From assembly GCA_947462335.1 (NCBI GenBank), contig OX381710.1, forward strand, positions 63,793,303 through 63,857,302: a stretch of DNA of 64,000 nucleotides, given 5' to 3'. The notes under the pieces are model-generated. The model ran no database searches and was not told the origin of the DNA. It saw only the letters and a list, made by a program, of their open reading frames with translations. The translations under genes were made by a program, and so were the position numbers. Below, one piece after another: positions 24,467-64,000 of this stretch. The stretch comes from Harmothoe impar (Eukaryota > Annelida > Polychaeta > Phyllodocida > Polynoidae). Positions within the stretch are counted from its first letter, which is position 1, and each line of letters starts with the position of its first letter.

Positions 24467-24468
24467 TA

Positions 24469-27400: not shown

Positions 27401-27661
27401 CCTGAATTGACAGTTGACAGTTGACAGTAAGTGACTGAAGTTGGAGTTTTCACTTTCAACTTTGACATTTGCATTGTTTTTGGTTTAATGTAGTGTTGAA
27501 AGATAGCAGTCACAAGTTGATTTACTTGAATTGACAGTTGACAGGTGACAGTAAATGGTTGAAGTTAGAGTTTTCACTTTCAACTCAAGTTGATTTTTTG
27601 CAAGTTGAAGTGAATTTGAAATTTCAAAATTACAAAAAGATTTGACCCTCCTGGGCCACTG
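24469..27661. mobile_element. Tc1/mariner-like element with 670-bp inverted ends and satellite interior
   Basis: Both ends read CAGTGGCCCAGGAGGGTCAA on opposite strands and sit next to TA (24,467-24,468 and 27,662-27,663), as in Tc1/mariner insertions. The left 24,469 to about 25,140 and right about 26,992-27,661 segments are inverted copies with only a few differences. The interior is 11-bp tandem repeats (core GTGACAAG with variable CAT, TAT, TGT, TCG or TAG) that switch strand near 25,535 and 26,934. A direct extra copy of the subterminal region lies at about 25,782-26,130. No transposase is present, so it is non-autonomous. Confidence 0.85.
24840..27310. repeat. 11-bp GTGACAAG tandem arrays, alternating orientation
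   Basis: Forward arrays (NNNGTGACAAG) at about 24,840-25,520 and 26,000-26,932; reverse arrays (CTTGTCACNNN) at about 25,542-25,780 and 26,935-27,310. Because 11 is not a multiple of three, any frame without a stop spells an 11-residue peptide repeat. This explains the very long open frames on both strands; they are not genes. Confidence 0.9.
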
Positions 27662-27663
27662 TA

Positions 27664-41836: not shown

Positions 41837-42540
41837 TTAGTCTAGTAAATTTAACCCATTTGGTGTGATGCTACATAGTCGGTGCATCCACCTTCGTTCC
41901 TCCACGTTAAGTTCCATTTTTCCAGCTGGGCATCTAGGGGGGCTCTTTATGAAACTTAGTACTGTTATTTCGAAGCCTTTCCATCTTGCTGGTTTCTGTG
42001 GAGGAGGGGAGCATAGATTGAAGTGTCTGCCGACCGGTTTATCCTGGTTGTTGTCTATGTCCCCGCTGTGTCCCTGGAATCTGTCCATTAAGCGTTCCAG
42101 AGTTTGGCCAACATACTGTATGCCGCAGGATGTGCATGTTATGGCATAGATGATATTGGCACTTTGACAGTTGACAGAAGTTAAAGTCCTGAACTTCCTG
42201 CCTGTAGTGGTCGATTGAATGAAGCCACTTTTGTTGAGTTTTGGGCAGTAACGACAATTCACAGGAGTGTTGCACGGGTACTTTTCTAATGTGTGGGACC
42301 TTGGTGGTGGGAGTCTTTTGGCTGGTGGATGCTCTCACCAATTCATCACCCAGACTTTTGTTGCATCTGTTGCCAAAGACGAGTTTGTGCTCGTGGAACT
42401 CTCGTGTGGTTTTTGTCTTTTTCATCTGGTCCTTAGTTCTCAGTGAGAATTTGTTTAATGGGGGGATTGTGAGGGTTGTGGGTAGTGATGCAGTAAAATG
42501 CTTTAGGTCTACCAGTGCTGGGGAGTTTTATTTTTGGTTT
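41837..42540 (-). pseudogene. Penelope-like element fragment: end of reverse transcriptase plus GIY-YIG nuclease
   Basis: On the minus strand the 3' end of a Penelope-like retroelement is readable. First comes an RT tail with NPPIKQI and a GDELVRA segment. Then, after a frameshift near 42,250-42,300, a Cys-rich linker (CRYCPKLNKSG) leads into the GIY-YIG domain: NIIYAITCTSCGIQYVGQT, then LMDRFQGHSGDI and PVGRHFN. The nuclease part is open to its natural stop. The RT core and 5' part are absent, so this is a 5'-truncated, frameshifted, inactive copy inserted in copy 1 of the tandem triplication. Confidence 0.85.
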
Positions 42541-45510: not shown

Positions 45511-45883
45511 TATTTACCCAAGTTACATACTTCTATTTTTTATGATGGGAATAGAATATTCCTCAAAAGCCTATTCCTCAAAAAAAATTACACTTTACTC
45601 CAAATCAAACATTTTGAGATGAAAAGCACATTATTAATTTCCTTTCCCAAGCAAGTAACATCTTTGTCAAAATGAGCCTTATACTTACGGAAAATAGTTC
45701 TTGCTACTATACCTCTATGTGTTAATTAAAATCCACATATTGATACAGGAACTATACATATGTAGGGGCTTAGTAATTCATGCACCTGAGAGGTAGGCCC
45801 GCCGAGGTGGACCGCTCAGGTAATCACTGCGCCCCTCCCGTATCGATCCAGTAATGTGAGACACAGTCTATCCGATAGGACAA

Positions 45884-45954
45884 GGGGATGTAGCTCAGTG
45901 GTAGAGCAATCGCTTGGGAAGCGGGAGGCCCCGGGTTTGAGTCCCAGTGTCTCC
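45884..45954 (+). tRNA. tRNA-like gene, anticodon GGG (Pro?) or tRNA-derived SINE head
   Basis: A 71-nt cloverleaf. The acceptor GGGGATG pairs with TGTCTCC (with G-U pairs), the D arm GCTC-AGTGGTA-GAGC is perfect, the anticodon loop is TTGGGAA, and the T arm is CCGGG-TTTGAGT-CCCAG with one mismatch. The A box (TAGCTCAGTGGTAGAGC) and B box (GGTTTGAGTCC) are close to consensus. The anticodon reads Pro CCC, but eukaryotes normally decode this with AGG, and the body resembles tRNA-Ala. The anticodon stem has weak outer pairs. Short inverted repeats (GTGAGACACAG / CTGTGTCCCTCAC) flank it. Confidence 0.6.
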
Positions 45955-46097
45955 TAAAATATCATTTTGGAGAAACTGTGTCCCTCACACATATTTCACC
46001 ACAAGACATTCAGCTAAAAATGATATTCTTTAAATTTAAAACATTTGCAAAAGTGTGTTTATATGTGTCAATGTATCATAATCCACACATGATAATT

Positions 46098-48764: not shown

Positions 48765-49122
48765 CTAACAACAGACTTCCTTTTAGGATTGGGGCCTCCT
48801 GGTGTGATTTCTGACTAATGAACATGCAATCACAAAATGAAAACTGCTCATTGCTGACTATCATAAGTGTTTTGTAAATCATTGAATGAATAGCAACAAT
48901 AGAATAATGTGGGGTGAATATCCCGGTGGTTCGGCAAGTTTACAAAGTCTGGATTGAAATCATATGCTCCAAGTTGTATTCCATGTATTAGCATCACATC
49001 CTAGTTTATGAATTCTAATGGTTTTATATTGCACTGATATCTGTCAGGCATTGACATTTGTCTGATGATGTCATTGACAATGGCCTTGTCAATTACCAAT
49101 ATCCGAGACAACACCCCATTGG
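48765..49122. other. Gene-free DNA next to the 14.3-kb element
   Basis: Unique-looking sequence. It ends ACACCCCATTGG, immediately before the direct repeat; if the element has a target duplication it should be drawn from this ending. Confidence 0.45.
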
Positions 49123-50926
49123 TGTACTGTTAAAGTACAGCAAGCCTGTCTCTCCTTACTTTTACAATGGCGCAGGTAGTTTTAATTAATAAAGTAAACA
49201 AAAGACTAGGTTCAAGCAGGCAGGTTTAATTAGGTACTAAAGTTATATGAAAATACATAGTGGTGGAAACAGTCCTTTAGGAAAGGAGCTTTTAGTAACT
49301 GCGTCGCAAGTAAACATATGCCCTGTGTTTAACTCATTAGGGGAAGGTTGTTTGTTTGGATAAGCCAGCGTCCAGTCCCGTGTATGAAAAAGAATCAAAT
49401 GTCCTATTGTGTGGAGGATAATGACTAATATGGTGATGTCCATTAATTATGGACTGACATCTGTAGGATTTAGAAAAAACTATTGTTGTGATGTACATGT
49501 ACATAACAGATATAAGTTCATGTGGAAACGGGCCTTTAGGCAGCAAGAGATGAGGAATTGCGTCTCCAGAAAACATGTCCCCCTGTGTAATCCATTAGGA
49601 GGGGGTATAGTCTGTTGTTGGTTTGGTTAAGGATGAGAGCTTGTGCAGTGAACGGGAAAAAGCAACAATAGGGCTTTGTGAGGAATAACATTATTGTTCC
49701 AAATTGCAAAAATATAGTCCGTTAAATATATGAGTGTTTTGAAAGTCCAGGCAGAATAAATCACTGTAGAACATCTGGTGGCCGTCCATGAAGGGAAAAA
49801 GAGGACGTTCAGTCGTCACTTTCTGGAAGAAATAAAGAAAAGAAAGAAGGGTAATAAAACAGTGGTTTTATTTCTTAAGGTATTACGTAGTGGGAAAGAT
49901 GAAATGGCAACATATATAATCCCTATTGGTTGAACAGAGAAGTTAGTTGGGAGAGAGCCTACCTGCCATGCAGAGATAGAGTGAGGAACAGTCAGCAGTT
50001 GTTGGGGGGGTTGGGGATTGATGCCCCATGCTGAGGACAGGGCTGGTATCCAGGCACTAAGTTGCAACAAGCAAACATTCAGCATTGTCAGGAACCCTTA
50101 TCACTATCTAAACACCTCACACCTCACTGACCTACAGGAATTGAAAGGAAGGTACACTACCATGTTAGTGGATGAACTTACCTCCTTTATTGTAAGTAGA
50201 AACCTTTTATATACTCCATGAAGGCACCGCCTGGTTACTGTGGAGAATCATTTTGAAGGTCTGAAGGAGTGGACTTTTACCAAACCGTTTAAACACTGCC
50301 AATCAGTTAGATATGTTATAGACATTTAGGTACTGCCGCCTGTGCCACCACTGTATTATGGTCTATTGTTGTTTATTCACGAAGTATTATAATCCCAGAT
50401 GTACATGCGAAATGTTCTGTAAACTAAAAGGAGAATCTACCAACTGTTTGATATAACATGCCCAAGGAAGAGGAACAATCATTCTACCTCAGAAATACAA
50501 TGGTACTTTAAGCATTTACCAAATGAGTGTGACTATGGAATAATTTGGGTGAGCCTCTGTTGTCACCATCCTAAGAAGGTGGTGACGGATACCTGAAGAG
50601 TATTGAGTAAGGAACTGAAACCCATATGGGATTTGACTCAGGGCTCACCCAAGTCTTACAATGTCTAAGTATGGAAAACCTTCTAATCTGACTGACTTGT
50701 GAACTCTACTACTACACACTGTTTGCACTGTGCTTACCTCATCTGCATAACTGAGTGAATTATTGACTGTGTTTTCCGGGATGATTGGCTAAGCACTACT
50801 TAACATCTAGAGTGCATTATATTGGAGAAGCCTGAGATGCTCATCTGTCAATTATGAATAAACTCTTTTGCCTGTATCTGACTCTCATGTTTATGTTTGA
50901 GTAGGATATGTACGGCTATTCTTACA
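49123..50926 (+). repeat. Left long terminal direct repeat (LTR-like)
   Basis: The first 553 bp match 63,448-64,000 with two differences, which proves a direct repeat. The remaining length is inferred. The sequence begins TGTACTGTTAAAGTACAG. At 50,857-50,862 there is AATAAA followed by a CTCTTTTGCCTG stretch like retroviral R-U5, and a TTACA at 50,926 gives TGTA...TACA ends. Within it, a segment of about 110 bp near 49,258-49,370 is imperfectly repeated at 49,518-49,640 (GGAAACGGGCCTTTAGG; AACATGTCCCCCTGTGT), as in enhancer-bearing U3 regions. No convincing primer-binding site follows. Confidence 0.65.
50857..50862 (+). terminator. Polyadenylation signal AATAAA in the left terminal repeat
   Basis: AATAAA followed by a T-rich, TCTGACTCTC sequence, in the position expected for the end of R in an LTR read on the plus strand. 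Confidence 0.5.
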
Positions 50927-50980
50927 TTACGCGAGTGACTCTACCTGAGACTTAGAACTTTTACTGATTGCCAAGCGAGT

Positions 50981-51376
50981 ATGAATACAACTATATCGTC
51001 TAAAGTAGTTTCCCCTCCATCACTTAAAACCAACAAAATTACACCCCCTACCGTACAGACTGGTGGAGAACCTCAGAGCTGCGTCCCGTCTTTAGATTGG
51101 AGGTACATCGCTCTCCGTACCGGATGGGCTCCGAGCTCAGTTAGGACCGCCCGCGGGAGACACAGTAATGACAGTGTCACAGACAAGGATATCCCAATAG
51201 TACCAGTACAGGTAGGTGGTCTGATGGTGGTAATGGCAGTGGTGTTGGCAGTGTGCATGGCAGTGAAAATGTGGGTGACATTAGATGTGATAAGTGAACA
51301 GTTCAATATGGAAGCTGAAGGGACTGCGCACCCCGGACGTCTCCTGAGATCCGAAGACAAGGCTGCCCCAGTCTAA
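50981..51376 (+). CDS. Predicted single-pass membrane protein (131 aa), unknown family
   Basis: The first open frame after the left repeat, starting at ATG in AGTATGAAT. The N-terminal 75 residues are hydrophilic (MNTTISSKVVSPPSLKTNK...). A single hydrophobic stretch follows at about residues 78-96 (GGLMVVMAVVLAVCMAVKM) and then a charged tail of about 35 residues. No cleavable signal peptide is seen, so if expressed it would be a membrane-anchored protein. A 45-bp sequence shared with 6,858 lies 87 bp after the stop. No resemblance to retroviral matrix or envelope proteins. It could be a chance frame, but the helix and the ATG context favour a gene. Confidence 0.4.
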   Translation: MNTTISSKVVSPPSLKTNKITPPTVQTGGEPQSCVPSLDWRYIALRTGWAPSSVRTARGRHSNDSVTDKDIPIVPVQVGGLMVVMAVVLAVCMAVKMWVTLDVISEQFNMEAEGTAHPGRLLRSEDKAAPV

Positions 51377-51462
51377 CTGGGTAGCGACAATAGGATACAG
51401 CCTGCAATGGGGCATGGTGACCAGGTTGGGGTCCCCAACCCTCACATATAGTACAAAGGATC

Positions 51463-51507
51463 ACATATGTGACCAGGCTAGGGAAAAGACCCATCCGGGG
51501 AGGAATT
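51463..51507 (+). repeat. 45-bp segment identical to 6,858-6,902
   Basis: Exact 45-bp match (ACATATGTGACCAGG...GGAGGAATT), then one mismatch and GTAT again shared. It lies just downstream of the 131-aa frame. Confidence 0.9.
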
Positions 51508-51589
51508 AGTATGTAAAAGAGAAGACTAGGGAGAAGACTTCTTGGAAACCCCAAATATAGCACGGATGGTTAACCAACAGTGATAAGCA

Positions 51590-51930
51590 GACACACAAAT
51601 AGATACCTTTCGGGAGAAAATTACCCTGGAAGAGATAGATACCTTTCGGGAGAAGAAATTACCCTGGAAGAGATAGATTCCTTTTGGGAGAAAAAATGCC
51701 CTAAAAGAGATAAATACCTTTCGGGAGAAAAAATTACCCTGGAAGAGATAGATACCTTTCGGGAGAAAATTACCCTGGAAGAGATAGATTACCCTGGAAG
51801 AGATAGATTCCTTTTGGGAGAAAAATGCCCTAAAAGAGATAGGTTCCTTTCAGGAAGAAGATACTTTGAAAGAGGTGGATCTCTTTGGGGAGGAAATTTC
51901 CTTCAAGGAAGAAATACCCTAGAAAATAAA
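51590..51930 (+). repeat. Purine-rich 36-bp minisatellite
   Basis: About nine units of AGATAGATACCTTTCGGGAG plus AAAATTACCCTGGAAG, lengths 36-39 bp with one 19-bp short unit. Unit length changes break any single frame, although one 120-codon frame (LEEIDTFREK repeats) survives. The strand stays strongly purine-rich to about 52,110. Confidence 0.85.
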
Positions 51931-52745
51931 AAGAATGAATAATTCCAGAAGAAGAAAAGAAGATAAGAAATAAAAAAAATTCCTTGCAAGAAGTAAAAGA
52001 AGAAGAGAATAGTTCCCTGAAAGAGGCCGTTCCTTTCAGGAAGAAACCATTACAAGAAGTACAAGAAGTAAATGTTCCTTCAAAGAGATTGTGCCTTTGA
52101 GGAAGAAGCAGAGAGTCACTGTATATAGGCCATAGGAGAAGTAACATTAGAAGGAACCGAGGGACTTGTGCTGCAGAACAAGTTCCCTAGCATATGGTCC
52201 ACATTATATCAAAAGAAGAATTAAGACAGTAATATTCAAAAGGCCGCAAATAAGAAGAATTTTGAGAAGGCAGAAGAAATAGAGTATTAATAGGACAAGC
52301 ACTAGAGGATGCGTGGTCACGTTCCGATACATTATATACTACTGAGGGCTCAGCAATTAAATCAATGAGAAGAAGGGATAGTTCAAAGATGGTTGGAAAA
52401 GGATGCTGAGGCCCGGCGATTTATCAAGCAAGACGATGAAGAAAGTACCGCCAGATAGGCGAGAATTGAATAAGCAGGATAAACTATGGCTAACTCAATA
52501 ATGGCACTTCACCAGAAATCTAAGATCGACCAATGGACTTTTTACAACAACCCTATGAATAACTTGGAATCCTCAGAAATTTAAATAGCAATCTGAAAAT
52601 TCTACAAAATATCCATGGACAATTTGGAGTGTGCCAAATATCAAATGACAACTTACCACCAACCAATTATAGTTAAACAATAAGTAGAATTGGAACTTTT
52701 TTAGAACTGACCATCTTGAACTAATAATTTGAATATATATAATAG
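51931..52745. other. Spacer inside the 14.3-kb element
   Basis: Holds a TATA-like CTGTATATAGG near 52,110, the first copy of the 32-bp box (52,315-52,346) and a 32-codon ATG frame at 52,485-52,583 (MANSIMALHQKSKIDQWTF...). This frame is too short to judge. Confidence 0.45.
52315..52346 (+). promoter_or_regulatory. 32-bp box, copy a
   Basis: GGTCACGTTCCGATACAT followed by TATATACTACTGAG. Two more copies lie at 53,029-53,060 and 55,981-56,012, while the flanking DNA is unrelated. Conserved core: CCGATACA, three variable bases, TATACTACT. It resembles a TATA-type promoter or a protein-binding site; role unknown. Confidence 0.6.
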
Positions 52746-52747
52746 AA

Positions 52748-53720
52748 CTGGCAAGAAATTGTGATGGGTGACTTTGATTGACAATTATAAATTACTGGAA
52801 GTGTGATCGACCGTCTGGGATTTTCAGGGTGAATCGACACAACTTCAAACGACACCACTTTAATTGACACAACTTGAATTGACACAATTTTAATCGACAC
52901 AACTTTTAATTGACACAACTTTAATTGACACAACCTTAATCAACACAACTTTAATCGACACAACTTGAATCGACGCCACTTGAATCAAACAACCTAAGGT
53001 CCAATGAGTGATGGGAGTGCTTGGGCATGGTCCTGTTCCGATACACAGTATACTACTGAGACGGTATGATCAGGGTTGGAAAAAACCCACGATGATAATC
53101 CGGGAGTGTCTAAGTGCACAGAGATAAGAAATCTAGGACTTCAAAATCTACGACCTCAAAATCTACGACCTTAAAATCTACGACCTCAAAATCTACGACC
53201 TCAAAATCTACTACCTTAAAATCTACGACCTCAAAATCTACGACCTCAAAAATCTACGACCTCAAAAATCTACGACCTCAAAATCTATAACTTGGGAAAC
53301 TTATCACTTAATAAGTCTACGACTGGGAGATCTATGACCTAGGAAATCGCCAACGTAAGAAAAATCTACGTCTTAAGAAAGTCTACGACCAAAAAATCGA
53401 TGACCCTAACAGTCTACGGCCTAACAATCTATAACCTCAACAATCTACGATTCTAAAAGAAAGCCCTTGGAAGTCGGGACTGACCCTCTCCAATTAACAC
53501 CTTGGAATCTACCCAAGAGAATTGGCAAGTAATTATGGTTGGTGATTTTGAACTGACAATTTGAACTTAGGGAAAATATGATAGACTATTCAGGATTTCA
53601 GAGGTGAATCAATGTAACCTGAATTAAACCAACTCCAATCGCCACAATTTTAATTGGCATACCTTTAAATGACACCACGTTGAAGTACACAATGTTATTC
53701 GGTTAAACTAAGGCTGATAC
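52748..53720. repeat. Twin tandem arrays with a duplicated leader
   Basis: A leader (GGCAAGAAATTGTGATGGGTGA ... ATTTTCAGGGTGAATCGAC, shortened here) at 52,748-52,850 recurs diverged at 53,522-53,620. After the first leader comes a 15-bp array TTTAATTGACACAAC (about 11 units, 52,835-52,990). After the second copy the same array is present but decayed (53,600-53,700). Between them is another 15-17 bp array, AAAATCTACGACCTC (about ten good units at 53,130-53,290, decaying to 53,460). Confidence 0.8.
53029..53060 (+). promoter_or_regulatory. 32-bp box, copy b
   Basis: GGTCCTGTTCCGATACAC then AGTATACTACTGAG. Same 32-bp length as copy a with a handful of substitutions. Lies between the two 15-bp arrays. 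Confidence 0.6.
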
Positions 53721-55000
53721 AAAAAAAAGCTGGCTGGGGAAGACAATTGTAAGGCCTTGAGTAATATGTATACATGATGACAAAACGACTGGAAATATCT
53801 ATGGTAATGAACAATTACACTAGTGGGAAATGAGTAATTACAGGAATAGGAGTGGCCTAGTGTGGAATTAAAAGAGATACATATATATTCATTTTTGGAG
53901 ATCTGGGAGGAGTATTTAATATAAAATGCATAGGACCGGCGAGTTCAAGATGCATGGTCATGAGTTTGGCCCTTATAAAAAAGCATCGGATTAATAAAAA
54001 ATAAGGACTAGATGGGGATGTAGGGATATGGAAACCTGCACGCCCTGGAGATCTAAGTTGAGTTAATACGGACGCTAAAGATAATGTGACGTCCAGAGGG
54101 GCACATTGATAATTACATTTAAGTGAATAATGACTCATGATGTCACCACAGGAGAGTGGAATAGACTGGAATTATTTGTGAATTACCCCTTTAAATTGAG
54201 AGGTATGTACTAACTATAACACTGTATTGAGACTATTGGTGTTTCTCTACGAGTAAAGGACCCAGGACACTCATCTGCAATTACAGATTCATCTCCGTTC
54301 GGGTATGGAATTTGGACATTTTCTGATATAGAGATTACAACCAGAATCATACTGCGCAGTTTGACGCTGAAGACACACATGAAGGGGTGTTTACCTGTTA
54401 TGGCTAACAAGAAATATATCTGATGTCAGGATCATACATTGACACCAGAATGACGCAGGGATAATAAAAGGGGCACAATGATGGTAGTATGGAGACCATC
54501 TGGAGGAGATTAAAAGCCGCCCGTCACGGATGTTAAGTGACGTAGCAGGCTCCTCCAGGGTTGAGACCCTGTCCTCCAGGGCAGACGTCGGCACAATGAA
54601 ACCCTGTAGGGGTGATTGTGTCAGAATTTATGGCCTGATGACAGCGGCTTGAGTGTGATGAGCTAAACTGATGTGCACAGAACGACAAACAAGTTGATGA
54701 GATAACCAAGAGATGTAATTGGCGTCCGCCATTTTAAAATGACACTAGACAAAGGAGAGGAGTGATGGGCACATCATAATGGCAGCCCTTGTTAGTGGTC
54801 AGCTGAAGTGGACATGTTTGTTGACATGGGACAGAACATGTTGTTATTGTGATAGGCGCAGGATATCTGGACGACAGATTAGTGTGAATGTCTGGGGACA
54901 ATGAACAGAGAGGGAAAGGGGGAGGGGGGGGGGGCAAGCATGATACATAAGATCCAGCGCGTAGCGCACATCTCCACAACCATCTAGTTAACGTTGATTA
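53721..55000 (-). other. Possible minus-strand coding pieces, unassigned
   Basis: Three minus-strand frames are suggestive. 53,857-54,138 has an ATG (MSHYSLKCNYQCAPLDVTLS). The second, about 54,210-54,330, is preceded by an acceptor-like ATCTCTATATCAG and reads ENVQIPYPNGDESVIADECP. The third, about 54,391-54,594, contains ALEDRVSTLEE, a short coiled-coil-like run, and ends at a CATAACAG/GTAAAC donor-like site. They could be exons of the minus-strand gene described at 60.4-62.6 kb. None is recognisable and chance is possible. A G-run lies near 54,920-54,933. Confidence 0.25.
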
Positions 55001-55003
55001 ACC

Positions 55004-55264
55004 ATGCCGCCTGATGCTCGACGTGTGAGTACCCCGACCAGTGTAACTGCCGACCTTGAAGGAACTGAAGATGACATCAGTGGGAAAGTGATACAGGCCC
55101 GTATCATTAACCCTGGAGTAATTAAATGGGAGCTATACATAAATGGTGTGAAGTTTGAAGGACAGAGCTTCATCAAAGACTCTCAACGTTGTATATTACT
55201 AGTGGACATTGGAGTGGCCCAACCTGGAGATAGGGCGCAACCTCCTATATACCTTCATAATTAG
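55004..55264 (+). CDS. 86-aa protein of unknown function
   Basis: ATG in a good context (TAACCATGC). Residues 1-25 are polar (MPPDARRVSTPTSVTADLEG). Residues 26-80 alternate hydrophobic and polar residues as in a small beta-rich domain (VIQARIINPGVIKWELYING ... CILLVDIGVAQPGD). The phrase SQRCILLVD faintly recalls SRRCIVVPY in the neighbouring 162-aa protein, so the two may share a fold; this is weak. It lies on the same strand 197 bp before the next gene and may share the polyadenylation signal at 56,545. Confidence 0.5.
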   Translation: MPPDARRVSTPTSVTADLEGTEDDISGKVIQARIINPGVIKWELYINGVKFEGQSFIKDSQRCILLVDIGVAQPGDRAQPPIYLHN

Positions 55265-55421
55265 AAGGGGAGTTAATGATACAAGTTAATCAATACAGGT
55301 GACTTCACATGAAGGTAGGGCGTGCATTGTTATTAAGGTGGAGAAAAGTCTGCCATGGCAATCTCAATCTGACAAGCACTGGAGGATAGTCGTGCATCAT
55401 TCAGGCTATACTGGCTAAGAG

Positions 55422-55428
55422 TATAAAG
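55422..55428 (+). promoter_or_regulatory. TATA box for the 162-aa gene
   Basis: TATAAAG 33 bp upstream of the ATG at 55,461. It implies a start of transcription near 55,450 and therefore favours this ATG. Confidence 0.5.
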
Positions 55429-55460
55429 TGATATGTGTATATATATGGGAATTTCACAAT

Positions 55461-55949
55461 ATGGCCTCTACGTCAGCGTTACAGGCTCTAGAGAAATTAG
55501 CAATAAACCCCACGGGTGAAAGTGTAGTCTCTCCACCACGTGCATGTAGTACGGCACTCCCAATGGTATATTCTACCAACATACAATTTGCTCATCTTAC
55601 GGATATAATTACTGTGATTTACGTACCCGTTACCAATAGATCCCAGAGGGAGGCAACAGAAACAGAAAGTGAACATTTCAGCCTCATGATTACACCTGTT
55701 AGAGTGCCCCCTAATAGCAGACGTTGTATAGTAGTACCGTACAAGCTTGCAGGTCCATGCACAGAACTTAGGATGATTGGACTTACCAACAAGTGTGTGT
55801 GTTTTGGCTGCCTCCAGATAGCTGTCAGCTATGCTAAAACCAACAAAATAGATCCCATCACTTATTTGAAACCAATTACTACAGCGGGGACTGTGGTGAT
55901 GCCTATCCACATGTCACACCTGGTAGCAGGAGGAACTACCTTGGTGTGA
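55461..55949 (+). CDS. 162-aa protein, founder of a two-member local family
   Basis: Starts MASTSALQALEKLAINPTGE at the first ATG after a TATA box. A disordered N terminus of about 40 residues is followed by a compact region: HLTDIITVIYVPV, an acidic EATETESEHFSL segment, ITPVRVPPNSRRCIVVPY, LAGP, then GLTNKCVCFGCL with a C-x-C-x-x-C pattern, TNKIDP, and a final AGTVVMPIHMSHL. A frameshifted paralogue at 58,369 keeps the same landmarks, so the frame is real and was under selection. No family known to me fits. The Cys cluster could bind metal. No signal peptide or membrane segment is seen. Virus-like context. Confidence 0.7.
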   Translation: MASTSALQALEKLAINPTGESVVSPPRACSTALPMVYSTNIQFAHLTDIITVIYVPVTNRSQREATETESEHFSLMITPVRVPPNSRRCIVVPYKLAGPCTELRMIGLTNKCVCFGCLQIAVSYAKTNKIDPITYLKPITTAGTVVMPIHMSHLVAGGTTLV

Positions 55950-55980
55950 GCATTATGTTACGTGCCAGTGGCTGGGCTAT

Positions 55981-56012
55981 GGTCCCATCCCGATACATAC
56001 TATACTACTTGT
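55981..56012 (+). promoter_or_regulatory. 32-bp box, copy c
   Basis: GGTCCCATCCCGATACAT then ACTATACTACTTGTGAG, 32 bp after the stop codon of the 162-aa gene and about 290 bp before the 69-aa gene. Slightly more diverged than copies a and b. Confidence 0.55.
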
Positions 56013-56304
56013 GAGTGTCCGTGCCACAGAAGATATTACCCAGCAGATGCTGGAGGAGACATTAACTGACGCTGGGGTATTGGGGTGACCCCCGGCGACC
56101 ATGGTATACGGGGAACCATTGAGACGACCCCTGAACGACACGCTCACACATTTTACAGTGTCAGGAATGTTATTATAGGTCCAATACTTAGTTTGGACTA
56201 TATATGTGTGTATATATATATATGTGTATGTAAAAAATGGTTTGATTCACCGTTATAATGACCACTATATGGCTATCAATTCGGATATGGAAATATGAGG
56301 GACA

Positions 56305-56514
56305 ATGGGTCAGTTATTTTCATGTGTACAGTCAGAGCGCCCCACGCGCCGAGTAGTCTATAATCCGCCAGGAGCTGGAAATAGTATGACACTCCACACT
56401 AATGCAATTAAAAGACAATTACGACAAAGACGTCATATTGGGCCCAAGGCGGGATTTGTGCCAGGGGTTTTGAATCAAGCGTTTGTGTCTCAACCCCAGA
56501 AAATACATGGCTGA
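56305..56514 (+). CDS. 69-aa protein with acylation-type N terminus
   Basis: Starts MGQLFSCVQSERPTRR: Gly2 with Ser6 matches the N-myristoylation pattern, and Cys7 could be palmitoylated. A basic cluster (KRQLRQRRH) at residues 36-44 would support membrane or nucleic-acid contact. The rest is Pro/Gly-rich and short. Many viruses use small acylated proteins of this kind at membranes, but I cannot assign a family. ATG context ACAATGG is good, and an AATAAA lies 31 bp beyond the stop. Transcribed toward the minus-strand 375-aa gene. Confidence 0.55.
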   Translation: MGQLFSCVQSERPTRRVVYNPPGAGNSMTLHTNAIKRQLRQRRHIGPKAGFVPGVLNQAFVSQPQKIHG

Positions 56515-56544
56515 ATATTGGGGGATGTGTCTGCTTAGGATGAT

Positions 56545-56550
56545 AATAAA
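56545..56550 (+). terminator. Polyadenylation signal AATAAA
   Basis: AATAAA 31 bp after the stop of the 69-aa frame, just before the convergent minus-strand frame ends. It could end transcripts for the 86-, 162- and 69-aa genes. Confidence 0.5.
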
Positions 56551-56559
56551 ACTAAATAC

Positions 56560-57687
56560 TCACGACACTGAGACGCTCTCCCCGGAGGCTGGTTGAGTAT
56601 AGGTGTAGACCTGCCGGGGTAGACTCCTTAGAGGGTACCTGGAGGCCCCCACGCCAGAGGTGCCAGCAGAGGGCTCACGACGGTAAGGATGATCGCGCGA
56701 CGGGGAGGCCGATACCAGACGTGGACCGGATCCCAAATCGGCTGAAGGGGTCCAGGTAACCGCCGACACCGGGCAAGGATCATCTGCACCGGAAGTGGGA
56801 ATGCGCCCCCAACTCACGCTGTAGCCAGGCACCCTGACCAACAGGGGTGGGGCGCGAGCCTCACTGACCGGAAGTGATGTAATAGACGGCGAGACCGTGG
56901 GTGTAGGAACACTCGCTGACCGGAAGTGATTCCCTGCGGCCTGCTGGGGATCCACCCACACCTGACGCGGCGACTGAACATCGACAGCTCCTGAGACCGA
57001 GCTGCAGGGCTTCACCTCCGTTGCCTGAGTGGCAGTTACGGCGGCGGAGATGAGCTCCGAGGACACCGGGACGATGTGATCCGTGACCGTCTCAGGGGTG
57101 TAGTGTAGCGTGCCGGCCATGGGAGGTGACCGCAGTGCCCTGAGTACCTGGCCTGCTATGGGCAACATTGGACTGACCGGAAGTGACGGGGGCGGAGCCA
57201 CCACCGAACACGCAGGAGGCGCCGACGGCGCGCTGATGGTGGAGCTTAACTGAGACAGGGGGATCCCTCCCACACCAGGGATGGGTCCCGACACGGTGCG
57301 CACTTGAATGGAGAAATCCGGTACCATCTGTTGGTAACTTCCGTAGGACGCTGAGGGCGCAGGATTCTGATACATATGGGGAATGTGAGCAGCCACCTCA
57401 TAATCCAGCTCCATTACCACATCAGTGACGTCGTGGGGGGACCTGTTCGGTAGGAGGTTCCGTCGGGACAGTGCTTCGCGGAATTGTCCCTCCGGGGGCG
57501 ATGAACCGTCCCAGTTACTGCTGACCCATACCAGCTGTGCTGAGAAGTCGTGTGTAGCAATACCATTCACGTTATAGATGGGAGTAGGAATTAATAGATA
57601 ATTTCCCTGTGTTTCTAATCTATCAAAGGGAACCAAAATCCGAACGGCACGGTGGACGACGGAGTTGAACACAATGGGGTCAGACAT
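56560..57687 (-). CDS. 375-aa protein with N-terminal domain and Pro/Ser-rich tail
   Basis: Longest frame in the window, GC-rich compared with its neighbours. From ATG at 57,687 (context CAAGATGTC) it reads MSDPIVFNSVVHRAVRILVP. Residues 1 to about 140 look folded (YLLIPTPIYNVNG, FSAQLVWVSSNWDG, DVVMELDYEVAAHIPHMY). Residues 140-375 are Pro/Ser/Val-rich and probably disordered. A few in-frame codons extend upstream of this ATG. At its end the last codons overlap GTGAGTATTT, a strong splice-donor consensus, so the real protein may continue into another exon rather than stop at the TGA. No recognised family. Confidence 0.6.
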   Translation of the reverse strand: MSDPIVFNSVVHRAVRILVPFDRLETQGNYLLIPTPIYNVNGIATHDFSAQLVWVSSNWDGSSPPEGQFREALSRRNLLPNRSPHDVTDVVMELDYEVAAHIPHMYQNPAPSASYGSYQQMVPDFSIQVRTVSGPIPGVGGIPLSQLSSTISAPSAPPACSVVAPPPSLPVSPMLPIAGQVLRALRSPPMAGTLHYTPETVTDHIVPVSSELISAAVTATQATEVKPCSSVSGAVDVQSPRQVWVDPQQAAGNHFRSASVPTPTVSPSITSLPVSEARAPPLLVRVPGYSVSWGRIPTSGADDPCPVSAVTWTPSADLGSGPRLVSASPSRDHPYRREPSAGTSGVGASRYPLRSLPRQVYTYTQPASGESVSVS

Positions 57688-57689
57688 CT

Positions 57690-58365
57690 TGATGGCACAG
57701 GAGCAACTCAAGAACTGAGCAAGATGGAGGATTGAAATTTAGAGTGGGGCAGAAGTATATGTACAGGAGGAATGAGAAATCAATTAAACTATAAATTCAA
57801 CCTTGAATGTGGCCGGAGAAACATTAGGGTCCAGACTGCGACGCGCTACCCAGAAGGAACAGTAATCAGTGTGAAGAGTTATTGTAGTGGGATAAAAGAA
57901 ACAGGGTTTTATAGTATGACGCCAGGACAGAGGGTTCGGTGAACATGAAGCCAGGATGACGCACTTATATGTTGTGTGGGCTGTATGGATATATATATAT
58001 ATATATAGTATCAATATAAAAGATACCTGTCAAATTAAAGGAGAATAGATTTGAGAAATCTGAAGAACTCTATGTGTGGTATTGATGTGATTTTGTACAT
58101 CATGTGGATAGGAATTATGATGGACAGTATTATTATTAAGAGAACGCGGAATTATGGGAACATAAGCCATGATGGCTCTCTAGGAGAATGAAAAGCAAAA
58201 TATTAATATACAAAACAGGGCTTCAATCACGGACTCTGGAACTGACCTCGATTTGCAGCATTATTGCTTGAAGGGTGGTGTGATTGACACACCTCTACAG
58301 TCAGGATTATTTCAAAGCCACAGTGGCACTGGTGCATATTAACACGGGGCACCTGCCTATGACAT
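57690..58365. other. Spacer between divergent genes
   Basis: Contains a short AT run near 57,990 and separates the minus-strand 375-aa gene from the plus-strand paralogue, so it may hold promoters for both. No clear TATA box for the latter. Confidence 0.4.
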
Positions 58366-58368
58366 AAT

Positions 58369-58841
58369 ATGGCGAGCTCTCCCGCCAGCGTAGACAAGGA
58401 ACCGCCGGAACCACCCGCAGCGGGAGGGGAATCTGGTATAGACGTTTGTGGCTATGATGGGGTGCCATTGTCGTTGTACGCAAATACTCTGCAATACGTT
58501 CACCTTACTGACAGTATAACTGCTGTTTATATGCCAGTGTCTCATCGACCTATAGGAGGTTCGTCTAGTATAGAGACAGAACCGTTTAGTCTTTTAGTAA
58601 CACCTGTTCGGCTAACTCCCAAGGATAGAAAGTGTTTCGTGATACCTTATGCTCTTGCCGGACCTGACAGGCAGGACAAATGATAGGACTAACCAACAGG
58701 TGTGTTTGCCCGGCTTGTCTCCGAGAAGCTTTGCGGCACGCTGTAACAAATGATATGGATCCGGTGAGTTGTTTGCGACCAATGAGTGTGGCGGGGACTG
58801 TCATAAAACCTGCTCCCATGCCTCATATCGTTTTGACATGA
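58369..58841 (+). pseudogene. Frameshifted paralogue of the 162-aa protein
   Basis: Starts MASSPASVDKEPPEPPAAGG and shares the landmarks of the gene at 55,461: HLTDSITAVYMPV, FSLLVTPVRLTP, RKCFVIPYALAGP. Close to position 58,670, between the LAGP motif and the following Met, there is one base fewer than in the paralogue. Reading in frame 1 therefore stops early at 58,683, while the homologous C-terminal part (GLTNRCVCPACL, TNDMDP, AGTVI) is open in another frame to the TGA at 58,839-58,841. The N-terminal 40 residues differ fully from the paralogue. It could be a decayed gene, a sequencing error or, less likely, a frameshifting site. Confidence 0.7.
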
Positions 58842-58844
58842 AAG

Positions 58845-59840
58845 GGTGCGAGCCATAACCAAGGAATAGTGGTATAGGAATGACAATACTACCAGTACAG
58901 TACTGACAGATGTGGAGATATGGACATGTATACAGGTGTATATTGTACGACTTGATAAAAACCCCAGTGGATATATTGGGCTTATGTAAATGAATGAATA
59001 GGTATAACATGGCCGGCCCTACCCAGTATGCCTCAGGGGACTGAGTGTCAGGTCGGGGGGGTTGCAAGAATATACCCTAAGACTATGTTATGATAAATGC
59101 CCGTCTCAGCGGACAAGGTGTACACACCTTGCGAAAAAACGAAATTGGACAAACCTACAATTTTTAAGTGACACCAATCACTTTGCATTTTTTAAAAATT
59201 TGTAATGATACCCCGGGACAGGCCACATTGATAAGGGTTACTTAGTGGTCTATAAGGTGATAGGGTCAAGATACAGAAGACGTTGTGTTTGGAGAGTGTA
59301 CCATACTTTATGCACGGATGACAGTGTGTATTATGTGATGGACTGTGTATGATATAAATATACATAATTATATATTTGCGAAAGTTGGGACTTTGGAGAC
59401 TGATCCTCGATTAATGAGATGTATAATGGACGTCGTATAGACGTGGATAGATATGTGTGTATAACCGGGAGTGCAGCATTGTGGGACATAAATAGACAAG
59501 TGGTGTCTCCCAAAAAGAAAGACAATCGACAAAGCAAAAGGCTGCAGTGCCACAAAGAGACTGTACAAGTAGAGACACGTGGCTGTGTGTAGGTCACGTG
59601 CTCACCACGATGTTGTGTTGACATGAAGGACATTGAGTCAGAAAGTAGCCAAGCAGCAATGAAGAAAGAGACGACCTCAGCACGAACAACGGTCATCAGG
59701 TTACTGACATTATATATATGTGTGGTGCTTATACATTAGCGACACGAGACCGTGTGTAGGTCACATGTGGAACTATAGCTTGGGTGTTTGGCATGGAGTA
59801 CGTTAGTCAAAACAAGCTAAGTAGCAGGACAAGAATAGAC
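58845..59840. other. Spacer with a duplicated upstream motif
   Basis: The phrase GTGTGTAGGTCACGTG (about 59,585) recurs as GTGTGTAGGTCACATG (about 59,752), each in a similar neighbourhood and about 170 bp apart, upstream of the 68-aa gene. TATATATA occurs near 59,712. A 121-codon ATG frame on the minus strand (59,331-59,696, starting MTVVRAEVVSFFIAAWLL) is hydrophobic at the start but otherwise unconvincing. Confidence 0.4.
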
Positions 59841-59841
59841 A

Positions 59842-60048
59842 ATGACATCTAGTATTAATCTACAACAAGAACGGGACAGTGTCATTGTATGTGGTGCTCA
59901 TTGCATGTGTTGTGCTCATAATGTTGAATTGTTGGTAATGATGACTTGCGGTAAAATGAGGGTAATTATTGTTGTGAATAATGATACTGTACACGTAGAT
60001 GACATGTGCTTGCTTTGCGGCTTGGTATATGATTGGGAATGTGAGTGA
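59842..60048 (+). CDS. 68-aa Cys/His-rich protein, probable metal binder
   Basis: Starts MTSSINLQQERDSVIVCGAH. Cysteines and histidines cluster at both ends: CGAHCMCCAH at residues 17-26 and CLLCGLVYDWEC at residues 56-67, with a beta-like stretch between (MRVIIVVNNDTVHVDDM). Two Cys pairs 35 residues apart are what a small zinc-binding fold would need. No named family recognised. An AATAAA lies at 60,165-60,170, 117 bp after the stop, and a duplicated motif with TATATATA lies upstream. Confidence 0.55.
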   Translation: MTSSINLQQERDSVIVCGAHCMCCAHNVELLVMMTCGKMRVIIVVNNDTVHVDDMCLLCGLVYDWECE

Positions 60049-60164
60049 AAGCAGGAGTGTGTTGACGTGATTGAGGGTATTAAATGGACAAAGGTTGCTA
60101 GTTGGAGGGGCTGTTCAGAAAGACGGACGGCTGCTCTGGGCGGTAAACCGGGGCATGGGTTTAT

Positions 60165-60170
60165 AATAAA
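60165..60170 (+). terminator. Polyadenylation signal AATAAA
   Basis: AATAAA followed by a purine-rich stretch, suitably placed for the 68-aa gene. Confidence 0.4.
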
Positions 60171-60455
60171 AAGGGGGAGGGGGGTAGTAAGAAAAGGAGA
60201 AGTGGGATAGGAATACAGAGACACATGACCAGGCGGGGAGATAGATAACTGATGCTACTGTAAGGGACAGAGGGCTTCCCTAGCCCATCTTAAAAGGGTC
60301 TTATTTGTTTGGACACTCTATAAATCATATTTCATATCAAACCCAGTATAATTCGGGAACAGAAAGAATATGAATGCTAAAAGAAACTGACTATTAAATA
60401 ATCTCTTCTCATCAGACATTGGCCGTACTATTAAAGGGATTGATAGTAGTAAAAT

Positions 60456-62635
60456 ACTTACCGAATCAGAACGATTAACTGTTGATGAGTTATGATAGTT
60501 TGGTATACCATTTCTACAGTAAAAATCTGCGTTTTTAGGCCAGACAACAGTAATCCTATAAACAAGAATAGGGGGCAATGACTTAATGATGAGGAAACTA
60601 CTTACCAGGGAGACTCACTAATAGTGTGGTCTACCACAAAAACCTCAATGAGGTTAACAAGGCAGGGTCAAACCCTGAAATAAAGGACCCGGTACTATTG
60701 TAATATCCTTACTCGTGACACCCTATTGGAGTGATGGGTGGAGATAATGCAGCAGAAATTTGTTGGAGTTGAGACGCTTGTGTCAGGGAAAAGAATAGAT
60801 TAGAAATCAACTTACCGTAAAGGAACTGTAGAAGAGCCTGTTACAGAGTGAGTTGTTGTTAGTATTATCAGTTATAGTAAAGAACACCTCGGTCATGGAG
60901 GAGAGGTCTGATACCTCCTCCCTATCCGACTTTATGTATGAGGGGTTTGTGTTCCTGCTACACTTAAGATTTTGGGTAGACATGAATGAGGGTGGAAGAT
61001 GTTGCTTACCTGACTCCAGAGAATGACATCTTATAATTAGTGGACAGCATGAATCTGGTGGTTAATGCATCAGGAGGTATTTGAGAGGTGCCATGGAGAG
61101 AATGTGAGAGAAAGGTACGGATGCATATTTATCAGCATTCTTTTATTATCCTTTTATAACGCTTTGTTGGTTACTTTATGAGGGTATATGTATAGACATA
61201 TATGACTTACTTGGTGGTACGTGTACAATGGTACCTCCCACTGTGAACGCTTTATCACAGTCTGGGCATGAGGTGACTGTAGGGGATAAAATGAGATGCA
61301 TAGGTCAGTAAATCATTAATCCCTATGACCTGACTATCCGATTTATTTACTTGAGGGTCATAGGACAGAAATGTATAAACAAAAGTTTATATTTGCTTAC
61401 CGGAGTGAGTATATCTGTGCCATTTCTCAAGACTTTCTCTGGCACATTGATACTTATTTTAATTGTAGAACTGTTGGGTTTCATAGATGCCTGATGGTGT
61501 CCTCCGTGACCTCCTGGGGTCCTGATCTAACAGGTGAAATGCTTACCAGGAACAGTGAACAACTGTGACACCTTTCAGGAGAGGAAGTGTTTTTAGAGCA
61601 TCGAAGAGATGGTTTATTGTTTTGTTGGGCATAAGAATGATGTCTTATTCTATTTTACTTACCAGGTAAGGGCTATTGAGTCAGAAGGCCCAAACCAATC
61701 ACTCTCCGAATAGCTGATGGATAACACGTACAATTTGATTGCATGAGACTGGGTCTGTTTGTGGTTATTTAAGCCCGAACTTAAGATTACTTACCTGAAA
61801 CATCCACCGTCAGGAAGGTTCCGAACTGTGTCAGGGAATCCTTCAGAGGATAGTCTAATCTAAGTGGCATGTACTTGAGAACGTGTCGTTATTGTCTTTG
61901 TTCTTTTTGGTGTATATATATATGTACATACATATTTTATTTAATTTTTTACGTATCCATATATAGGTAAAATGCAGTGAAAAAATTCTCACTGAACCGG
62001 ATGATATAGGTTGAATAAAATGCCGAGAAAGAAAGGAGATCTGGCGGACTTACCCTGAGGGGAAGAGCGCAGCGGACCCCTAAATCACCTCTACCAGCCA
62101 CTTGCTCTAGGGGCGTTGTGACTCATAGCATGCGAAGTCCCCTCGTGATCAAAGTCAATGAGGAAATGCCTGAATGTGTACATGCATGATCCAACGAGGT
62201 GAATCCAATACATTGTTGACTATGTATGTCCAGAATTTTATATTGTCTACGATTTCTTATTTTGTATGAATATGCTGGGGTTTTGATGACTTATCTGTTG
62301 AGGGTGGGACTGACCGACATGCTGCTTTTAACGCTCCGGTGCTTTCATGTTATAACTGTGTCATAGGAACTTACCTGAAGGCGATCGTAATTGATCATGT
62401 TTAAATTCGCTGGTTTGCTGATACCATTTATTGCCATATGGAGTGTGTGTGTTATCTAGGCATGTGCTAAAACGTAAGTGTCTACTCTGAAGATAGCTAC
62501 CTGAAGGTGTATCTTTCAAGAATATTGTCATGTAGGTTACCTGCCCTCGTTACAAGGTACCGGGAAAATCCCTGTATAAGCAGGGGAATAACTGGACTTA
62601 CTCACTTCGACTTGGAAGGTAGATAATACCGCCAT
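60456..62635 (-). CDS. Candidate multi-exon minus-strand gene, many short exons
   Basis: On the minus strand, GTAAGT or GTAAGC occurs at 12 places: plus-strand hexamers starting 60,456, 60,600, 60,810, 61,004, 61,205, 61,395, 61,541, 61,657, 61,789, 62,048, 62,369 and 62,596. About one would be expected by chance. Most follow an open stretch of 25-100 bases, and several have good acceptors (for example CCCCTACAG before the segment 61,211-61,276). A first exon may start at ATG 62,635 (MAVLSTFQVE). Some segments look protein-like (SCPDCDKAFTVGGTIVHVPP at 61,211-61,276; FFTITDNTNNNSLCNRLFY at 60,816-60,907). Exon phases do not all agree and some implied introns are very short, so the gene model is provisional. 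Family unknown. Confidence 0.4.
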
Positions 62636-62639
62636 GTCG

Positions 62640-62971
62640 ACAGATCATTGTTTCGGGAACTGAATTTGTATAACCTGAAATTGAGGGTCCGCATGAACCC
62701 ACGCTTAATTTGTAGAGGGTGAAATTCTAGCAAAAGACAGTGGATCACAAGGAAGAAATATATGCTGTAGTGTTACCCCATACAAGCTTGCTTGTATTAA
62801 CAATTACAGGCTAGTAGGTGGAAAGGCAGTAACAAGAGAATAGAAAGAAAGGGAATCCCTGAATAGGAATTAGGATCCCAGCAGATGAGCCTAGGAGGAC
62901 TTTTAATTACCTTTGACAATGAAGAGAGTATAGTGGAACCCGTAAGTAGGTAGTCAGTAGAAATTAGCAGG
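62640..62971. other. Spacer
   Basis: If the minus-strand gene is real its promoter should lie here. No TATA box stands out. Confidence 0.35.
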
Positions 62972-62974
62972 TAA

Positions 62975-63296
62975 GGGAGTGTCCATTTATTAATTACAGG
63001 GGGGGGGTGGTGAGATTTCGCGCGGAGGGGCGAAAATTTTTTACGCCCCCCCCTCGAGAGCGCGTGTAACGTTTTGCGCCCCCCTCGCCGAAGGCGCCGA
63101 AAATTTTTCGCCCCCCCCCCCTTTGAACTATAGTAACGCGCGGGCTTTTTGGCTAAAAAGGGGCTTAAATTTTTACGCCCCCCCCTCAAGAGAGGTCAGA
63201 ATTTTTTACGCCCCCCCCTCAGAAGGGGTCGGAAATTTTTACGCCCCCCCCCCCAAACCCACCACCCCCCCCTGTAAATAATAAATGAACACTCCC
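62975..63296. mobile_element. Harbinger-like MITE with G/C-run interior
   Basis: Ends GGGAGTGTCCATTTATTA and the complement of GGGAGTGTTCATTTATTA, flanked by TAA on both sides (62,972-62,974 and 63,297-63,299), as in PIF/Harbinger elements. The interior from 62,997 to 63,274 has its own inverted ends (CAGGGGGGG...CCCCCCCTG) next to TA dinucleotides. It consists of repeated AATTTTTTACGCCCCCC units, so it may be a second element nested in the first. Confidence 0.75.
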
Positions 63297-63299
63297 TAA

Positions 63300-63447
63300 G
63301 ATTGATAGGTTGAGAAGACCAATGATAGGAAAACTTTCGAAATATTAAAATAAATTGGAATTATGATGGATGAGAGACAGGGCTTGAAATCAGCCAATAA
63401 ATGAACACGACTAGCGTGCCGCTAGTCTGAGTAAACCCCCCAGTAGC
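63300..63447. other. Spacer before the right repeat, with a small hairpin
   Basis: GACTAGC-GTGCC-GCTAGTC (63,409-63,427) is a 7-bp hairpin 20 bp before the right repeat. The last bases, GTAAACCCCCCAGTAGC, are not the polypurine tract expected of a plus-strand retroelement. On the minus strand TGGGGGGTTTACTC starts five bases from the repeat and is only loosely like a primer-binding site. Confidence 0.5.
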
Positions 63448-64000
63448 TGTACTGTTAAAGTACAGCAAGCCTGTCTCTCCTTACTTTTACAATGGCGCAG
63501 GTAGTTTTAATTAATAAAGTAAACAAAAGACTAGGTTCAAGCAGGCAGGTTTAATTAGGTACTAAAGTTATATGAAAATACATAGTGGTGGAAACAGTCC
63601 TTTAGGAAAGGAGCTTTTAGTAACTACGTCGCAAGTAAACATATGCCCTGTGTTTAACTCATCAGGGGAAGGTTGTTTGTTTGGATAAGCCAGCGTCCAG
63701 TCCCGTGTATGAAAAAGAATCAAATGTCCTATTGTGTGGAGGATAATGACTAATATGGTGATGTCCATTAATTATGGACTGACATCTGTAGGATTTAGAA
63801 AAAACTATTGTTGTGATGTACATGTACATAACAGATATAAGTTCATGTGGAAACGGGCCTTTAGGCAGCAAGAGATGAGGAATTGCGTCTCCAGAAAACA
63901 TGTCCCCCTGTGTAATCCATTAGGAGGGGGTATAGTCTGTTGTTGGTTTGGTTAAGGATGAGAGCTTGTGCAGTGAACGGGAAAAAGCAACAATAGGGCT
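63448..64000 (+). repeat. Right terminal direct repeat (cut by window end)
   Basis: Matches 49,123-49,675 with two substitutions in 553 bp (at the positions equivalent to the ACTGCGTCGC and CTCATTAGGG phrases of the left copy). The repeat continues past the window, so its full length and what follows are unknown. The near identity shows the duplication is very young. Confidence 0.9.

What the first reader, a model, noticed from the sequence alone, without database searches (positions are those of the whole stretch)
49123..64000. A 14.3-kb unit bounded by near-identical long direct repeats but with no recognisable polymerase or integrase
Seen: 553 bp at each end with two differences, TG start, possible 1.8-kb length with AATAAA and TACA end. 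Seen: small intronless genes on both strands inside. Known: LTR retroelements carry gag-pol and use a primer-binding site and polypurine tract; neither is found. Inference: either a non-autonomous LTR element loaded with accessory genes, an integrated DNA virus or large transposon with terminal direct repeats, or a tandem duplication of such a unit.
Basis: partly seen in the sequence, partly recalled or inferred. Interest (0 to 1): 0.88.

Follow-up and report, generated by a model that had tools for sequence, protein, structure and literature searches.

The report
Satellite-like retroelement keeping only accessory genes
This is a mobile retrovirus-like element that has lost its replication genes but still carries small accessory genes, and it probably spreads by borrowing the machinery of larger relatives in the same genome.

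Summary
The direct repeats are LTRs of 1,935 bp (TGTAC...GTACA; window 49123-51057, and from 63448 past the window end) flanked by a 4-bp target duplication (TTGG). Related elements with their own duplications, and solo LTRs, are dispersed in the same 1.51-Gb genome. The unit is no DNA virus or tandem duplication. It is a non-autonomous relative of a ~23-kb env-bearing Ty3/gypsy element found in about 30 copies, whose pol and env-like frames are mostly open. In the unit gag-pol and env are replaced by unrelated segments, but an 86-aa gene, a 162-aa gene (A) and a 375-aa antisense gene (AS) remain open, with dN/dS 0.19-0.27 against the relative. A paralogue of A (gene B) sits in the env position. 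B was found in four elements, all without RT; in one (C18) A and B have swapped positions. Helper dependence and the role of the accessory genes are inferred. Close precedents exist (rotifer TelKA2n, plant Retand), so this is a new variant of a known kind. Novel points: the A/B/AS family, the reciprocal A/B arrangement and a conserved 3' end without a purine tract.

The parts
49119..49122 (.). left copy of the 4-bp target-site duplication (TTGG); right copy lies outside the window at C7:63858685-63858688
49123..51057 (+). 5' LTR, 1,935 bp, TGTACTG...CCGTACA; AATAAA at 50857
   Evidence: 99.4% identical to the 3' LTR
51061..51069 (+). PBS-like TGGTGGAGA, 3 nt after the LTR; TGGTGGAG(A/C)ACC in most relatives read; tRNA not established
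50981..51376 (+). 131-aa ORF: first ~26 codons in the LTR, remainder matches the N-terminus of the relative's gag; truncated
51470..54494 (.). 3.0 kb with tandem repeats, lying where the 23-kb relative has about 9.1 kb of gag, protease, RT and integrase
55004..55264 (+). 86-aa gene, homologue in the 23-kb relative (54% aa)
55461..55949 (+). gene A, 162 aa, MIGLTNxCVCxxC motif; dN/dS 0.19 against the 23-kb relative
56560..57687 (-). antisense gene AS, 375 aa; 38 of 39 genome matches without internal stop in the matched stretch
57688..58368 (.). divergent region between AS and B; its first ~210 bp align with the 23-kb relative
58369..58841 (+). gene B, paralogue of A in the env position; broken by one frameshift in this copy, open in three sister elements
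60599..63447 (+). 3' presumed non-coding region, partly shared with the 23-kb relative (e.g. 61789-62979 at 79%)
63409..63447 (+). conserved 3' internal terminus: 7-bp hairpin then TGAGTAAACCCCCCAGTAGC directly before the LTR; no polypurine tract
63448..64000 (+). 3' LTR, cut by the window end; continues to C7:63858684

Best explanation
A non-autonomous ('satellite-like') LTR retroelement. SHOWN: LTR structure, 4-bp target duplication, dispersed relatives and solo LTRs; absence of gag (beyond its N-terminus), protease, RT, integrase and env; presence in the same genome of ~23-kb Ty3/gypsy relatives with mostly open pol and env-like frames and with a related leader, 3' terminus and accessory genes; low dN/dS in A, B, AS and the 86-aa gene between diverged copies; A and B in opposite positions in different non-autonomous elements. 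INFERRED: the RNA is packaged, copied and integrated in trans by proteins of the 23-kb family (or of a close relative not in this assembly), because LTR ends, leader and 3' terminus are conserved. The element keeps A, B and AS because they act as regulators matched to its own LTR, which is about 78% identical to the relative's over the longest stretch that aligns; helper regulators may not serve it, whereas Gag-Pol does.
For: Target duplications in 9 of 10 testable elements or solo LTRs (11 examined), and LTR pairs 99-100% identical, i.e. recent insertions. 29 of 33 A-type copies have an RT 6.2-7.4 kb upstream on the same strand; the 4 without are the four B-bearing elements, in which tblastn with the relative's protease, RT and env pieces also finds nothing at E 1e-5. 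RT close to Ty3-G (7q5b, E 4e-68); gag, protease, RT-RNaseH and integrase domains in the one 23-kb copy examined. dN/dS against that copy 0.19 (A), 0.22 (AS), 0.27 (86-aa gene); three presumed non-coding blocks compared between non-autonomous copies gave w 0.54-1.62 in 18 frames. The 20 nt before the 3' LTR are identical in eight of nine elements and differ by one base in the ninth.
Against: No expression, packaging or mobilisation data. Only four elements of this type were found. Much of the A and B divergence predates assembly of these mosaics: the backbone differs by 4-6% while A and B differ far more at synonymous sites, so the low dN/dS may have arisen in autonomous donors. The signal at or near backbone divergence is thin: ours vs C4b, AS 11 synonymous vs 7 nonsynonymous (w 0.23, p 2.5e-3) and A 12 vs 8 (w 0.21, p 7.5e-4), but the 86-aa gene has 2 nonsynonymous and no synonymous change there, and A ours vs C4a has w 0.66 on three changes. 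Two of 18 control frames reached p 0.02-0.03. B is broken in the window copy. Two shorter elements (C3, C4short) lack the accessory genes, so these are not strictly needed in cis.
Confidence: 0.75

Rival explanations
1. The four elements are simply defective proviruses of an unseen autonomous element carrying both A and B (extinct, exogenous or in other individuals); the genes were selected there and are now passengers.
For: A and B are more diverged than the backbone and show a recombination tract; B in the window copy is broken by a frameshift. The LTR search scored only 40 of 121 candidates, so an autonomous copy with this LTR type could have been missed; none was seen.
Against: The four share replacement segments as well as the losses, fully (C4a, C4b) or in part (C18), so they share a non-autonomous ancestry or recombine with each other; B was found only in elements without RT; C18 has A and B in reversed positions, which a single parent would hardly give.
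Confidence: 0.35
2. Large retrotransposon derivative of the plant LARD type: genes are relics without function and only cis signals matter.
For: C3 and C4short, with 4.3 and 5.1 kb between LTR starts, lack A, AS and B and have identical or nearly identical LTRs; C4short also has a target duplication, C3 does not.
Against: Open genes with dN/dS 0.19-0.39 between diverged copies; 112 of 116 (A family) and 38 of 39 (AS) genome matches have no internal stop in the matched stretch.
Confidence: 0.15
3. Integrated DNA virus or transposon with terminal direct repeats, or a tandem or segmental duplication.
For: No replication domain found inside the unit; genes on both strands.
Against: Right repeat ends at the LTR terminus and is followed by TTGG and unrelated DNA; solo LTRs with target duplications; gypsy relative with homologous leader and 3' end.
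Confidence: 0.01

Closest known systems
TelKA2n, non-autonomous LTR family of bdelloid rotifers (PMC5408684, passages read)
   Same: [quoted passage not shown] related to the TelKA2 family
   Different: keeps env; here env is lost too, and what is kept is an accessory gene set with an antisense gene and a second paralogue in the env position. That paper saw mostly neutral variation in such ORFs within the genome
Retand-lineage gypsy elements of plants (PMC11963269, abstract and passages read; review PMC7264820, passages read)
   Same: long internal region, tandem repeats, conserved antisense ORF between pol and 3' LTR, some non-autonomous members
   Different: the antisense protein there is mostly TRP28 (PF04195), not matched by AS here; its sense ORFs showed no env features; here an env-like gene is present in the relatives
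Burro giant gypsy elements of planarians (review PMC6431247, passages read)
   Same: giant animal gypsy element with env-like region and extra coding
   Different: Burro puts extra domains mainly in one huge polyprotein; here they are separate small genes, one antisense, and non-autonomous derivatives keep them
Helper-dependent non-autonomous endogenous pararetroviruses of grasses (PMC5491270, abstract and outline read)
   Same: defective elements proposed to rely on partners through shared non-coding signals kept alike by recombination
   Different: pararetroviruses without LTRs (recalled)

Membership tests
LTR retroelement | long direct terminal repeats beginning TG and ending CA | tested here: met
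LTR retroelement | short target-site duplication and solo LTRs | tested here: met
   TTGG here; 9 of 10 testable (11 examined; C3 lacks it, C4b right LTR runs into N); solo LTRs L017, L024
LTR retroelement | tRNA primer-binding site after 5' LTR | tested here: inconclusive
   TGGTGGAGA 3 nt inside, conserved; a scan of 21 recalled PBS sequences at 13 of 18 or more gave nothing at this place
LTR retroelement | polypurine tract before 3' LTR | tested here: not met
   conserved AAACCCCCCAGTAGC instead, also in the 23-kb relative
Ty3/gypsy (Metaviridae), the 23-kb relative | gag, protease, RT-RNaseH then integrase; RT close to Ty3 | tested here: met
   one copy examined; 7q5b Ty3-G among the two best PDB matches
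Ty3/gypsy (Metaviridae), the window unit itself | own gag-pol | tested here: not met
   affiliation only through its relative
Errantivirus | recognisable baculovirus-F-type env (recalled definition) | tested here: not met
   relative's 892-aa env-like frame: no Pfam match at E 0.1 or better and no convincing PDB match (best E 0.051); RDRR site and two hydrophobic segments
LARD (large retrotransposon derivative) | non-coding internal region (recalled definition) | tested here: not met
   open genes with low dN/dS

The most novel reading that the evidence does not exclude
A retroelement 'satellite' with its own selected gene complement: it discarded gag, pol and env, filled the env position with a second member of the accessory gene family, and is retained because A and B together, in either order, give it control of its own LTR or a hold over helper elements of two lineages. 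The reciprocal arrangement (p86-A-AS-B against p86'-B-AS'-A) would mean that carrying both paralogues arose more than once.
Probability: 0.35. Interest if true: 0.85.

Novelty: new variant of a known kind. Interest (0 to 1): 0.62.

Why it matters
Non-autonomous LTR elements are usually thought of as non-coding passengers. Here a small group keeps, recombines and perhaps depends on accessory genes while lacking the replication genes, as satellite viruses do. It also points to a giant env-bearing gypsy lineage with conserved sense and antisense accessory genes of unknown function, in many recent copies with open frames, so the question of what antisense and accessory ORFs in gypsy elements do becomes testable.

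Tried and rejected
Pfam scans of unit ORFs: nothing credible. Protein searches with A and AS alone: no homologues at E 0.001. IMG/VR scans with A, AS and the A3 alignment: no relative confirmed. Structure predictions of A and AS: mean pLDDT 35.7 and 33.1, not used. Rfam on the window: one tRNA only. The similarity of the left flank to the sequence before the right LTR is weak (35 of 2000 random pairs as good) and is not read as a longer repeat. A tree of 12 A/B proteins was poorly resolved; only the B group was firm (98/99), and the tool warned that this branch meets another long one. Host identification failed: the PF00129 search did not complete. The 25-bp profile was set up wrongly and gave no result; the script failed and was corrected, where minus-strand loci were not turned, so its short ORFs for those loci were not used. 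One paper search returned nothing.

My first idea, that dN/dS of A and B proved selection in the non-autonomous phase, was weakened after the backbone control showed that A and B come from more diverged donors.
Full report
The observation. The two 553-bp copies differ at two positions and start 14,325 bp apart. The window is G000:C7:63793303-63857302 of a 1.51-Gb assembly in 736 contigs. Beyond 64,000 (L009) the right copy continues for the full 1,935 bp of the left copy (99.4% identity) and ends in GTACA; the following bases are TTGG, the same as the four bases before 49123. This makes it an insertion with a 4-bp target duplication, not a tandem array. The LTR is 49123-51057, not 49123-50926.

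Dispersed relatives. A genome search with the 553 bp gave 40 scored matches (121 candidates), many as same-strand pairs 4-23 kb apart. Eleven elements or solo LTRs were examined at their ends. Nine have perfect 4-bp duplications (ours TTGG, C4a CTAT, C18 TTAC, C8 GGTC, C6 AAAT, C4short GTAG, the 23-kb C7 element GGAG, solo LTRs L017 GTGA and L024 ATAC); C3 does not; C4b cannot be tested because its right LTR runs into N. In C6 the right LTR begins TATACTG, not TGTACTG. LTR pairs within the nine two-LTR elements are 99-100% identical (for C4b over 1,336 bp only), so the insertions are young.

The autonomous-looking relative. A pair 23 kb apart on C7 (L020-L022) holds, in order: a 1,007-aa gag frame with Retrotrans_gag, protease, RT-RNaseH, integrase, homologues of our 86-aa, 162-aa (A) and antisense 375-aa (AS) genes, and an env-like frame of at least 892 aa with an RDRR site and two hydrophobic segments but no Pfam match. 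The best PDB matches of its RT are 4ol8 and Ty3-G (7q5b, E 4e-68). In that copy AS has one internal stop. A 400-aa RT piece gives 105 rows (104 of 10,818 candidates scored): 30 at 98-100% (family 1), four at 87-90% from three places (family 2), and 71 at 63-68%. Of the 30 family-1 rows, 26 lie in open frames of 1,700 aa or more; 7 of the 105 rows have an internal stop. The env-like piece gives 66 rows (64 of 1,097 candidates scored), 30 of them family 1 (97-100%), three of those with a stop. Gag and protease were examined in one copy only.

What the window unit kept and lost. Against the 23-kb element our internal region aligns at 51058-51442 (leader and gag N-terminus), in five blocks between 54495 and 57897 (86-aa gene, A, AS), and in five blocks between 60272 and 63447. 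About 9.1 kb of gag-pol is replaced by 3.0 kb with tandem repeats, and 4.3-4.6 kb with env by 2.4-2.7 kb containing gene B, a paralogue of A (lengths worked out from the coordinates). tblastn at E 1e-5 with the relative's RT and protease finds neither in the window nor in the 16 other stretches among L010-L026 (all but L022, their source); C4b and C8 keep a 3' piece of the integrase frame, C6 a short one, and C8 a short env piece. Of 33 A-type copies at 67% identity or more, 29 have an RT 6.2-7.4 kb upstream; the four without it are ours, C4a, C4b and C18. These four are also the only places where B was found; three further short matches at 30-38% were not classed.

The accessory genes. The A search gave 116 rows from 124 candidates, 112 without internal stop in the matched stretch; they fall into the four elements above, family-1 copies (67-74%), gene B (46-51%), a 164-aa type (36-38%), a large group mostly with 207-236-aa frames (26-29%) and a few others. 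The AS search gave 39 rows from 50 candidates, 38 without stop; two of the rows are second pieces of listed copies. The profile A3 (7 rows) found two further proteins from ENA, P0003 and P0004 (195 aa, no name), which resemble the 236-aa type by eye. Invariant residues in A3 include MxGLTxxCV and a second cysteine, possibly a metal-binding site (inference). dN/dS: A 0.19 (ours vs C18 and vs the 23-kb relative), AS 0.22 (vs relative), 86-aa gene 0.27 (vs relative) and 0.42 (vs C18), B 0.27-0.39 among intact copies over the full length. Very close pairs carry too few changes to say anything. Three presumed non-coding blocks, compared between non-autonomous copies and read in six frames, gave w 0.54-1.62; two of these 18 frames reached p 0.02-0.03. 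For A and AS the true frame gives the strongest signal; one antisense frame of each also shows a weaker one (A 0.29, AS 0.37), as expected where third positions coincide.

Mosaic structure. In ours, C4a and C4b the order is p86-A-AS-B. In C18 it is p86'-B-AS'-A, with p86' at 41% and AS' at 42-45% identity to ours (coordinates). So B stands in the first position and A in the env position there. Ours and C4b are 93-100% alike across AS and B except a ~300-bp tract inside B at 76-84%. Recombination has therefore moved these genes between elements. This cuts both ways: both paralogues are present in all four, but much of their divergence need not have accumulated in non-autonomous elements.

How it most likely works. 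Shown: structure, losses, conservation. Inferred: transcription from its LTR, packaging and integration in trans by the 23-kb family (LTR ends, leader and 3' terminus conserved), and accessory proteins acting on its own LTR. The 20 nt before the 3' LTR, next to a small hairpin, are the same in eight of nine elements including the 23-kb one; one base differs in C4short. The nine were located by an 11-base piece of this end, which all nine contain. There is no polypurine tract; how the plus strand is primed is open.

Comparison with known systems. Rotifer TelKA2n (PMC5408684) is the closest precedent for a non-autonomous element that keeps an extra ORF. Retand elements (PMC11963269) are the closest for antisense ORFs, tandem repeats and non-autonomous members. 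Burro (PMC6431247) is a giant animal gypsy with env.

Limits. Genome searches score only the best candidates, so counts are lower bounds and absences rest on the fetched stretches. The host was not identified. The folding jobs were uninformative. No expression data were available.

Noticed in passing
C4:60269000-60271500 (L057) and one search list: A second giant element group (RT 63-68% to family 1, 71 rows, mostly open pol frames) has a 236-aa A-like gene, an open S/T/P-rich frame on the opposite strand (seen in one copy) and an env-like gene at 35% identity.
   Followed up: partly
C1:107928344-107942147, C20:31757406, C8:72755652: Family 2 of giant elements (RT 87-90%) with a 164-aa A-like gene, an AS-like gene at 26% and, in two of the three, an env-like match at 65%.
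   Followed up: partly
window 62976-63296: About 320 bp present in our copy but absent from C4a, C18, C4b and C3; ends look like inverted repeats (GGGAGTGT.CATTTATTA), next to a repeated TAAG: probably a small DNA transposon nested in the unit.
   Followed up: partly
window 63409-63447: 7-bp hairpin followed by AAACCCCCCAGTAGC at the 3' end of the internal region instead of a polypurine tract; the seventh pair is not kept in the 23-kb relative.
   Followed up: partly
L016 (C3:58543600-58552500): Short element with 100% identical LTRs but no matching target duplication (TAGC/TTGC) and an inverted copy of flanking sequence on the right.
   Followed up: no
window 24467-27663: 731-bp inverted repeat, 99% complementary, around long 11-bp minisatellite arrays (AGTATGTGACA).
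   Followed up: no
window 41840-42334, minus strand: ORF that looks by eye like the GIY-YIG part of a Penelope-like element (not tested).
   Followed up: no
window 45883-45956: tRNA-Pro with anticodon GGG (ARAGORN), possibly a tRNA-derived repeat.
   Followed up: no
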